Assembly: GCA_030583665.1 (NCBI GenBank)
Contig: CP129469.1
Coordinates: forward strand, 868,001-932,000
Direction of reading: 5' to 3'
DNA: 64,000 bases
DNA from: Candidatus Jettenia sp. AMX2
Lineage (GTDB): Bacteria; Planctomycetota; Brocadiia; Brocadiales; Brocadiaceae
Positions 5,600 through 8,476 of this stretch are shown in pieces; positions within the stretch are counted from its first letter, which is position 1, and each line of letters opens with the position of its first letter. Below the pieces are notes generated by a model. That model saw nothing but the letters and a program-made list of their open reading frames with translations. It was not told the origin of the DNA and made no database searches. A program made the translations under genes and the position numbers.

Positions 5600-5671
5600 G
5601 TAGGGGCGAAGCATTTGCAACAGATTGGTATAATGCGTTTATATCCAAACCGGCAAATGCTTTGCCCCTAC
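5600..5671. repeat. Long imperfect inverted repeat (GTAGGGGCGAAGCATTTGC)
   Basis: Arms at 5600-5618 and 5653-5671 are complementary over 19 bases with one mismatch and are separated by 34 bases. Such GTAGGGGC-AAGCATTTGC units are common dispersed palindromes in environmental bacterial genomes. No T run follows directly, so terminator function is not supported. Confidence 0.75.
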
Positions 5672-5838: not shown

Positions 5839-5985
5839 GAAAATACATCACGATAAGGGTAAACCCTGAGTGATCAGGGGGCGCAAAGAAAAGGGTCTTT
5901 AAGTATGTTGTTATGATTTTTCTCAGGAATGCAGAAAATATGGGGCCATGAGTCATAACTGAACCAGTTACCATACCGGTTCAAT
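5839..5985 (+). promoter_or_regulatory. Candidate GEMM-I (cyclic di-GMP class I) riboswitch
   Basis: The order of conserved pieces matches the GEMM-I aptamer. CACGATAAGGGTAAACC (5849-5865) aligns without gaps to the Vibrio Vc2 segment. It is followed by a six-bp hairpin (5864-5869 with 5874-5879) capped by a GTGA tetraloop, then GGCGCAAAG (5880-5888) and AGGGTC (5892-5897). A distal arm forms from GTTATGA 5910-5916 with TCATAAC 5953-5959, stacked on CTCA/TGAG. CAGTTACC (5965-5972) matches the 3' conserved part. The base equivalent to Vc2 G20 is G (5858), and A47 is kept (5885), which favours c-di-GMP over cGAMP. A TTGACA at 5759-5764 may be its -35 box. A strong terminator follows, then a nucleotide cyclase gene. 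Confidence 0.72.
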
Positions 5986-6014
5986 ACATAACTAAAGGAG
6001 TACAGAAAAGACAG

Positions 6015-6064
6015 CCTTACTGCCGAAGAGTGTTTTTCAGGCATCTTCGCAGTAAGGTTTTTTT
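6015..6064 (+). terminator. Intrinsic terminator, probable riboswitch expression platform
   Basis: Stem 6015-6029 pairs with 6044-6057 (14 bp with one bulged C) and is followed at once by seven T residues. It lies about 40 bases after the candidate aptamer and about 150 bases before the cyclase start codon, the usual place for ligand-controlled attenuation. The sense of control (on or off) cannot be read from the sequence. Confidence 0.85.
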
Positions 6065-6214
6065 ATTGAATGATATCATAAAAACATTTTAATCCGTGAC
6101 GACAATACAACACTTTCAATGCTTACGGACCGCCAAACCTGTTAAAATATTTTTCTTCATTTTATGAAAAATATTTCATTGAAAAATTAAAGAATCTATG
6201 CAAAGAGGTATTCA

Positions 6215-8476
6215 ATGATGCTCCATTTACGCAGGGCAATACTCTTAGGGTTATTTACTGGTCTGTTAGGAATAATGATCGGTTTTTTCCCTTTCGTGAG
6301 CGGTCTTGAAGAAAAAGCAGATCTTGATTTGTTATTTAGGTTGAGAGGTCCCCGTCAGGTGCCGCCGGATGTCGTTATTGTCAGCATAGATAAACATTCC
6401 GCCCAAAAACTCAATATCACCGGCGACCTTAAGGAATGGCCCCGGTCTCTTCATGCTTCACTTATTGAAAGTCTGACCAATTTAGGCGCTGGAGTTATTG
6501 CGTTTGACCTTCTTTTTCACGAACCTGCCACATCAGAGGATGACGATGCATTTGCCAGGGCAATCAGCAAGACGTCCAATGTTATACTCTGTGAATCACT
6601 GAGAAAGGAAACAATTCCTTTGCCTGACAAAAGGGGTCCTCCCGCCGGGGATATTCATATGGTGAAACTGGTACAACCAATTCCTCTCTTTACACAATCG
6701 GCTCTGGCAACAGCGCCGTTTCCCCTGCCTAAAGTTCCTGTCCGAGTAAGTCAGTATTGGACGTTTAAAACATCTGCCGGAGAGAGGCCGACCTTTCCGG
6801 TTGTTGCCTTCTATATCTTTGCATTACCGCAGTACAATAAATTCATACAGTTGCTGGAAAAGCATGATCCTTCGGTAGCCGGTAGATTACCCAGCGACAT
6901 GAATGAAGTAATTCATTCAAAATCTATGATAAGGGTTATTGAGGTAATCCGGGATATTTTCAGAAAAAACCCCTGGATTGCAAAGAAAATGCTAAAAGAG
7001 CTTGAAGCGTTACCGTCAATATCTGCGGATGCCAGAGAAAAACAGATTCTCAGGTCGTTGATACGGATTAACCACTACCAGGACTGCCGGTATTTGAATT
7101 TTTACGGACCTCCTGGCACCATTCCTACGATTTCCTATTATCAGGTATTGCAATTTGCGGATAAATTGAAAATTGAACAAAAGCCGGCCTATTTTAGTAA
7201 CAAGGTTGTATTTATCGGGTCTTCCGGAGATTTATACTCTTTCCAGAGGGATAGCTTTTATACGGTTTTTTCACAGCCGGACGGATTGGACCTCAGTGGA
7301 GTTGAAATTGCCGCAACTGCATTTGCAAACACCCTCGAGGATATGCCAGTGCTTCCTCTTTACGGGTATTCCTACTTGGGGACTATCTTTTTCTGGGGTT
7401 TTACCGTAGGCATTATTTGTTATCTCTTCTCTACGGGTATTTCAGCAGCCGGTGTTACGGGAATAAACGGTGTGTATTTGCTCTTTGCACTGTATCAGTT
7501 TGAGAAGGCAGGTGTATGGTATCCGCTGACTATCCCTCTTTTTATACAATCACCTCTTGCTTTTTTTACCGCTATAATAGGAAGATATGTTGAGGTAAGC
7601 AAAGAACGGAAAAATATCAAAATGGCTTTCAGACATTACATACCGGATGATGTTGTTGACCAGTTGTCAAAAAACCTTGCAGGGTTAAGAACACACAATC
7701 AGTTAGTTTACGGAACATGTTTATCAACAGACGCTGAACAATATACCTCCCTGTCTGAGACCCTTGATCCGAAAGAGCTGAGAAGTTTTATCAATACATA
7801 CTATGAAGCTATCTTTGAATCGATAAAACGGCATGGCGGGCTGGTGGCAAATGTAATTGGCGATTCTGCGCTTGCGCTATGGGTCATGACACATCCGGAT
7901 GAAGAACGCAGGGTACAGGCGTGCCTTTCGGCTCTCGATATACAATGGGGAATCAGGCGGTTCAATCAATCTTCCCCTTTTATGCAGCTTCCTACCCGTA
8001 TCGGATTACATTCCGGACATATGCTGCTTGGAAATATTGGCGCTGCAGATCATTACGAGTACCGTCCGATAGGCGATATAGTCAATACGGCAACAAGGAT
8101 AGAGGGATTGAATAAATACCTCGGCACCAGAATCCTGGTTTCTGAAGAAGTGATTACCAATGTTGATGATTTTCTGACAAGGGAGATCGGGAAATTTCTC
8201 CTGGCAGGGAAATCAAGACCTCTTGCAATCTTCGAATTATTGTGTCTGAAAGAAGAATCCAATCAACGGCAGAGGGATCTTTGTTTATGGTATGCTGAAG
8301 CGCTCGATGCATTTAAAAGGCAGTTGTGGTATGAGTCGATGGAAAAATTTTATAAAATCATCAGAATATACGGAGATGACGGACCTTCAGTATTTTATAC
8401 AAAATTGTGCAAAAAATACAGAAACAAACAGTATGGAGAATCGTGGAACGGGGTGATTTGCATGCGGAAGAAATAG
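6215..8476 (+). CDS. CHASE2-domain class III adenylate/guanylate cyclase
   Basis: A 753-residue membrane receptor. Residues 8-28 form a first membrane helix, residues 30-380 an extracytoplasmic CHASE2 sensor (IDKHSAQKL, ALPSISADAREK), then three helices at about 385-460. The cytoplasmic cyclase domain (about 490-670) keeps both metal Asp (STDAEQYT and IGDSALALW) and the transition-state Asn/Arg (IVNTATRIEGLNK). At the two base-specifying positions, usually Lys and Asp, it has Asn (NVIGD) and Glu (YEYRPIGD), so substrate is not predictable. A helical tail of about 70 residues, TPR-like, ends it. Start at the first of two ATGs, with AGAGG in front. A candidate c-di-GMP riboswitch and terminator lie upstream. 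The FecR protein gene follows after 96 bases. Confidence 0.9.
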   Translation: MMLHLRRAILLGLFTGLLGIMIGFFPFVSGLEEKADLDLLFRLRGPRQVPPDVVIVSIDKHSAQKLNITGDLKEWPRSLHASLIESLTNLGAGVIAFDLLFHEPATSEDDDAFARAISKTSNVILCESLRKETIPLPDKRGPPAGDIHMVKLVQPIPLFTQSALATAPFPLPKVPVRVSQYWTFKTSAGERPTFPVVAFYIFALPQYNKFIQLLEKHDPSVAGRLPSDMNEVIHSKSMIRVIEVIRDIFRKNPWIAKKMLKELEALPSISADAREKQILRSLIRINHYQDCRYLNFYGPPGTIPTISYYQVLQFADKLKIEQKPAYFSNKVVFIGSSGDLYSFQRDSFYTVFSQPDGLDLSGVEIAATAFANTLEDMPVLPLYGYSYLGTIFFWGFTVGIICYLFSTGISAAGVTGINGVYLLFALYQFEKAGVWYPLTIPLFIQSPLAFFTAIIGRYVEVSKERKNIKMAFRHYIPDDVVDQLSKNLAGLRTHNQLVYGTCLSTDAEQYTSLSETLDPKELRSFINTYYEAIFESIKRHGGLVANVIGDSALALWVMTHPDEERRVQACLSALDIQWGIRRFNQSSPFMQLPTRIGLHSGHMLLGNIGAADHYEYRPIGDIVNTATRIEGLNKYLGTRILVSEEVITNVDDFLTREIGKFLLAGKSRPLAIFELLCLKEESNQRQRDLCLWYAEALDAFKRQLWYESMEKFYKIIRIYGDDGPSVFYTKLCKKYRNKQYGESWNGVICMRKK

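What the first reader, a model, noticed from the sequence alone, without database searches (positions are those of the whole stretch)
5839..8476. Candidate c-di-GMP riboswitch and terminator in front of a CHASE2 nucleotide cyclase
Seen: the conserved GEMM-I pieces in correct order (CACG...AGGG-AAACC, a GNRA-capped hairpin, GCGCAAAG, AGGGTC, a distal arm, CAGTTACC), then a 14-bp terminator with seven T, then the cyclase gene. Known: GEMM-I RNAs sense c-di-GMP, or cGAMP when the G20 equivalent is changed; here it is G. Inference: one nucleotide messenger may control synthesis of the enzyme for another, a cross-talk circuit I do not know as described.
Basis: partly seen in the sequence, partly recalled or inferred. 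Interest (0 to 1): 0.78.

Follow-up and report, generated by a model that had tools for sequence, protein, structure and literature searches.

The report
c-di-GMP riboswitch before a nucleotide cyclase
In an anammox bacterium, an RNA switch of the type that senses the messenger c-di-GMP sits in front of the genome's only class III (cAMP/cGMP-type) cyclase gene and probably turns it on, so one cellular messenger may control production of another.

Summary
The RNA is real. The true 3' half is 6010-6028, and it is also the 5' arm of the terminator. Aptamer and terminator therefore exclude each other, which predicts a ligand-ON transcription switch, as in Geobacter pilM. Rfam gives 49.2 bits (E 1.2e-10, below its cut-off). 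A model built from 22 Brocadiaceae relatives, without this copy, gives 114 bits (E about 1e-21). The ligand contacts G20, A47 and C92 are intact, pointing to c-di-GMP, not cGAMP. The target operon is a CHASE2 class III cyclase, the only one found in the genome, plus a FecR/TPR/barrel protein. A second switch of the same make precedes the genome's only CRP-type regulator, although that gene is frameshifted in this assembly. The combination looks genus-specific: the sole congener has the RNA at the same place before a decayed cyclase, and no ortholog checked in other genera has it. Ligand binding, the cyclase's product and the relay are all untested.

The parts
5849..5897 (+). aptamer 5' half: P1 5' strand (5849-5852), J1/2 with G20 at 5858, P2 hairpin 5864-5879 with GUGA loop 5870-5873, A47 at 5885, P3 5' strand 5887-5897
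5898..6009 (+).
6010..6028 (+). aptamer 3' half: P3 3' strand (6010-6012, 6015-6021), G83 at 6014, C92 at 6023, P1 3' strand (6024, 6025, 6028)
6015..6064 (+). intrinsic terminator sharing its 5' arm (6015-6029) with the aptamer; 3' arm 6044-6057; seven T 6058-6064
6215..8476 (+). CHASE2 class III nucleotide cyclase, 753 aa; the only PF00211 match in the genome
8573..11944 (+). FecR/TPR/outer-membrane-barrel-like protein, 1123 aa; conserved neighbour of the cyclase, no terminator found between

Best explanation
The leader at 5849-6064 is a c-di-GMP-I (GEMM-I) riboswitch that acts at transcription as a ligand-ON switch. With c-di-GMP bound, the strand 6010-6028 is held in the aptamer (P3, P1 and C92). 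The terminator cannot form and RNA polymerase reads into the cyclase and FecR/TPR/barrel operon. Without ligand the same strand pairs with 6044-6057 and transcription stops at 6058-6064. High c-di-GMP thus raises the level of the genome's only class III nucleotide cyclase. Shown by computation: homology, pocket residues, overlap of the two folds, target genes. Inferred: ligand identity, ON direction in the cell, cyclase activity and product.
For: RF03167 E 1.2e-10. Independent clade model 114.2 bits. The alignment of 24 relatives keeps 95% of aptamer pairs, with 5 pairs changed on both sides; 5 of 500 shuffles reach that count and 0 of 500 reach the covariation score. Terminator pairs are kept at 96% on the same strand. 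Conserved contacts listed in PMC3764141 (G20, C44, G45, A47-A49, C59, G79, G83, C92) are present at 5858, 5882, 5883, 5885-5887, 5897, 6010, 6014 and 6023. The same interlocked platform appears in seven sibling copies of this genome and in other genera. The Geobacter pilM riboswitch has this architecture and is a proven ON switch whose terminator sequesters the ligand-pairing C (PMC9262584). PF00211 has one hit in the genome. All ten GGDEF motifs that could be read keep the canonical Asp (nine GHxxGD, one GYQTGD) and none has the Hypr Ser (Hypr feature from PMC6456294; residue mapping from my own knowledge).
Against: Both Rfam scores lie below the curated cut-offs. C22 is U here, giving a U-G wobble, and P3 has one A-A mismatch. 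By secondary-structure energy alone the aptamer-length RNA prefers another fold by 9.3 kcal/mol, against 1-5 for most Brocadia-type copies but 6-14 for copies of this genome. The 112-nt insert is unusual. The congener's cyclase is a remnant, and full-length orthologs elsewhere lack the RNA. A CD-NTase in the genome leaves room for another cyclic nucleotide.
Confidence: 0.8

Rival explanations
1. Same riboswitch architecture, but the physiological ligand is cGAMP or another cyclic dinucleotide rather than c-di-GMP.
For: The best Rfam model is a variant model, RF03167. Position 19 varies (A or G) among copies. The genome has a CD-NTase. The interlocked layout is that of a cGAMP switch, pilM.
Against: G20, A47 and C92 are the c-di-GMP set; an A20G change alone turned a Geobacter cGAMP switch into a c-di-GMP switch (PMC6456294). 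No Hypr-type GGDEF was found, while ordinary GGDEF proteins are many.
Confidence: 0.1
2. A decaying riboswitch: homologous to working siblings, but no longer switching because of the P3 insert, the U at 22 and competing folds. It would act as a constitutive terminator or a passive leader.
For: Below both Rfam cut-offs, energy gap 9.3 kcal/mol, 112-nt insert, decayed cyclase in the congener.
Against: Pocket, P2 and its loop, C44-G83 and the terminator are all intact. Siblings of the same genome have similar energy gaps. The cyclase frame is open over 753 codons with conserved catalytic residues.
Confidence: 0.12
3. One reading: aptamer closed by CAGTTACC at 5965-5972, followed by an independent terminator.
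For: CAGTTACC resembles the Vc2-type 3' end; RF01051 alone scores a stretch ending at 5927.
Against: All aligned relatives end the aptamer with the strand at 6010-6028, which both RF03167 and the clade model choose.
Confidence: 0.02

Closest known systems
c-di-GMP-I (GEMM-I) riboswitches, Rfam RF01051; Vibrio cholerae Vc2
   Same: P1/P2/P3 layout, GNRA loop, G20, A47, C92, C44 and G83 all present
   Different: U instead of C at 22, a 112-nt insert in P3, 33.9 bits against a cut-off of 35, and a class III nucleotide-cyclase operon as target
Geobacter metallireducens pilM cGAMP riboswitch (GEMM-Ib), PMC9262584
   Same: The aptamer 3' strand including the ligand-pairing C doubles as terminator strand; a ligand-ON transcription switch. 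A GEMM before a PilM-type gene also occurs in this genome (L088).
   Different: The cGAMP class carries A20; here G20, so c-di-GMP is expected
c-di-GMP-I-GGC, Rfam RF03167
   Same: Best-scoring Rfam model; same length and pairing pattern
   Different: Its consensus has G where the window has A47, and the score is below the gathering cut-off
V. cholerae gbpA, regulated by c-di-GMP and by cAMP-CRP (PMC4545359)
   Same: A c-di-GMP riboswitch and cAMP signalling meet in one circuit
   Different: There both inputs converge on one target gene; here the riboswitch leads the cyclase gene itself and, at another locus, the CRP-type gene

Membership tests
c-di-GMP-I (GEMM-I) riboswitch | P1-P2-P3 aptamer fold with covariation | tested here: met
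   20 of 21 pairs form in the window; 95% of cells pair across 24 relatives, 5 pairs change on both sides
c-di-GMP-I (GEMM-I) riboswitch | ligand-contact bases G20, A47, C92 and interhelical C44-G83 | tested here: met
   5858, 5885, 6023, 5882/6014; numbering tied to PMC3764141: aptamer base n = Vc2 base n+10 in the 5' half
c-di-GMP-I (GEMM-I) riboswitch | Rfam RF01051 curated cut-off (a bookkeeping threshold, not a structural feature) | tested here: not met
   33.9 bits against 35; the window is homologous to siblings in the same genome that do pass
c-di-GMP-I (GEMM-I) riboswitch | binds c-di-GMP | not testable with these tools
   needs in-line probing or ITC
c-di-GMP-I-GGC (RF03167) | curated cut-off of 59 bits and G at the A47 position of its consensus | tested here: not met
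   49.2 bits; window has A47
cGAMP GEMM-Ib riboswitch | A at position 20 | tested here: not met
   G20 at 5858
class III nucleotide cyclase | two metal-binding Asp plus the Asn/Arg catalytic pair | tested here: met
   D506, D550, N624, R628, invariant in the three orthologs aligned
class III adenylate cyclase (ATP-specific) | Lys and Asp/Thr purine-selecting residues | tested here: not met
   N546 and R617 instead, invariant in the orthologs; the product (cAMP or cGMP) cannot be assigned
CHASE2 sensor proteins | CHASE2 domain | tested here: met
   PF05226, E 1e-31
CRP/FNR regulator under the second switch (G000:C1:1342457-1343026) | cNMP-binding domain plus Crp HTH in one intact reading frame | tested here: inconclusive
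   both domains found but the frame is broken by one base in this assembly; open in relatives of other genera

The most novel reading that the evidence does not exclude
Probability: 0.3. Interest if true: 0.75.

Novelty: new member of a known kind. Interest (0 to 1): 0.55.

Why it matters
Riboswitch control of a class III nucleotide cyclase by c-di-GMP was not found in the papers that could be searched. If it works, it wires two second messengers in series by RNA alone. It does so in anammox bacteria, for which no riboswitch study was found, even though all 33 Brocadiaceae genomes searched carry GEMM-I RNAs, up to 58 in one genome.

Tried and rejected
My own first reading that position 20 differs between the window (G) and the congener (A): rejected after fixing the numbering; the varying base is 19 and G20 is invariant (correction noted). 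Rfam at gathering cut-offs: no hits, so lower thresholds and clade models were used. The RNA before orthologous cyclases: none before the full-length orthologs of G030 (Ca. Brocadia sp. WS118) and G056 (Brocadiaceae S225), nor in 74 loci from named genomes (Rfam cut-off scan of 18 of them). The G029 contig ends too close to judge. CRP orthologs in nine other Brocadiaceae: no GEMM in the fetched flanks. First genome-contig scan with the single protein: nothing. A shared promoter upstream of the sibling switches: no common sigma-70 pattern. Co-occurrence of cyclase and CRP across the family: only a weak trend by my count, not claimed.

Full report
What is there. The window is part of a 3.46 Mb single-contig genome (window = C1:868001-932000). 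At 5849-6064 lies a GEMM-I aptamer interlocked with a terminator, then a CHASE2-cyclase gene and a FecR/TPR/barrel gene.

Check of the observation. The 5' half is as described. The conserved 3' half is GACAGCCTTACTGCCGAAG at 6010-6028, found by Rfam RF03167 (49.2 bits, E 1.2e-10, cut-off 59). It is near-identical in seven sibling copies of the genome and in many Brocadiaceae copies. RF01051 scores 33.9 against a cut-off of 35. To avoid circularity I built model R2 from 22 other copies; it finds 5845-6075 at 114.2 bits, E 9.4e-22 (E-values of these models are rough), and the congener's copy at 131.9 bits.

Pocket and ligand. Using the residue list of PMC3764141, aptamer base n in the 5' half equals Vc2 base n+10. 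G20 is 5858, C44 5882, G45 5883, A47 5885, C59 5897, G79 6010, G83 6014 and C92 6023. C22 is U (5860) here and in the congener; it is C in the 22 other aligned copies of this make, a shared derived mark that supports common descent of the two leaders. G20 and A47 are invariant in the aligned Brocadiaceae copies. In a Geobacter cGAMP switch A20G changes selectivity to c-di-GMP (PMC6456294). The genome has eleven GGDEF hits; the ten motifs that could be read all keep the canonical Asp and none has the Hypr Ser. c-di-GMP is therefore the expected ligand. A CD-NTase is present, so another cyclic dinucleotide is not excluded.

Mechanism. The terminator 5' arm (6015-6029) overlaps the aptamer's P3 and P1 3' strands and C92, so the folds exclude each other. 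Aptamer pairs hold in 95% of cells with covariation, terminator pairs in 96%. The terminator stem covaries no more than shuffles, being nearly invariant. The isolated terminator folds at -24.1 kcal/mol. This is the layout of the pilM riboswitch, a proven ON switch whose terminator sequesters the ligand-pairing C (PMC9262584). By energy alone the aptamer fold lies 9.3 kcal/mol above the best fold of the aptamer-length RNA, typical for this genome (6-14) but larger than in most copies from other genera (1-5). Ligand and tertiary contacts are not in that number.

Targets. The cyclase keeps both metal Asp and the Asn/Arg pair, but has Asn and Arg at the purine-selecting positions, so cAMP or cGMP cannot be assigned (residue roles from general knowledge of class III cyclases). 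It is the only PF00211 hit in the genome. The pairing with a FecR/TPR/barrel gene is conserved in G030, G029 and G056 by position and end sequences, and no terminator was found between the two genes. The other 13 switches precede a GGDEF-EAL protein, a subtilase, pseudopilins, a PilM-type protein and surface proteins among others, a typical GEMM regulon. One precedes a CRP-type gene that holds the genome's only HTH_Crp_2 and one of its two cNMP-binding domains. Its frame is broken by one base here, while it is open in relatives of other genera. If about 14 of roughly 3000 genes are led by such a switch, a given gene is led by chance in about 0.5% of cases; this is my estimate, and the pairing was noticed after the fact.

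Conservation. In the only congener (G001) the RNA sits at the same place, but the cyclase is cut after about 92 residues and joined to the end of what looks like the downstream barrel gene; no CRP ortholog was found there. No GEMM precedes the full-length orthologs of G030 or G056, any of the 74 loci from named genomes, or the CRP orthologs. The wiring thus looks like a genus-level acquisition, not a general feature of the cyclase.

Verdict. A new member of a known riboswitch class with a target not described in the searchable literature (most subscription papers are not held). The anatomy supports c-di-GMP-ON control of the genome's only class III nucleotide cyclase. The relay to CRP is the attractive extension, weakened by the frameshift and by the congener's decayed locus.

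Noticed in passing
G000:C1:1342148-1343026 (L017, L090): A second switch of the same kind directly precedes the genome's only CRP-type regulator; the gene is frameshifted by one base (CCC in GTTATCCCTATC) in this assembly.
   Followed up: partly
window 5600-5671 and about 30 places in the genome: Palindromic repeat GTAGGGGCGAAGCATTTGC...GCAAATGCTTCGCCCCTAC (28 forward, 27 reverse hits, none in the reversed control); copies lie within about 300 nt upstream of three of the 14 GEMM RNAs.
   Followed up: partly
33 Brocadiaceae genomes: All carry GEMM-I RNAs, up to 58 in one genome, many with the same stereotyped aptamer-terminator sequence and some in close pairs; no paper on riboswitches in anammox bacteria was found.
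   Followed up: partly
L018 (G000:C1:2760878-2760982, minus strand): A sibling riboswitch has U at position 92, the base that pairs with the ligand; possible altered specificity or decay.
   Followed up: no
L201:2397-2858 (G000:C1:1782396-1782857): A single-domain cyclic-nucleotide-binding protein is encoded inside a hydrogenase-like operon between Fe-S and NAD-binding subunits.
   Followed up: no
L199:1378-2649 (G000:C1:1557877-1559148): A CD-NTase of the oligonucleotide-cyclase kind with an AbiGi-like neighbour, a possible source of other cyclic nucleotides.
   Followed up: no
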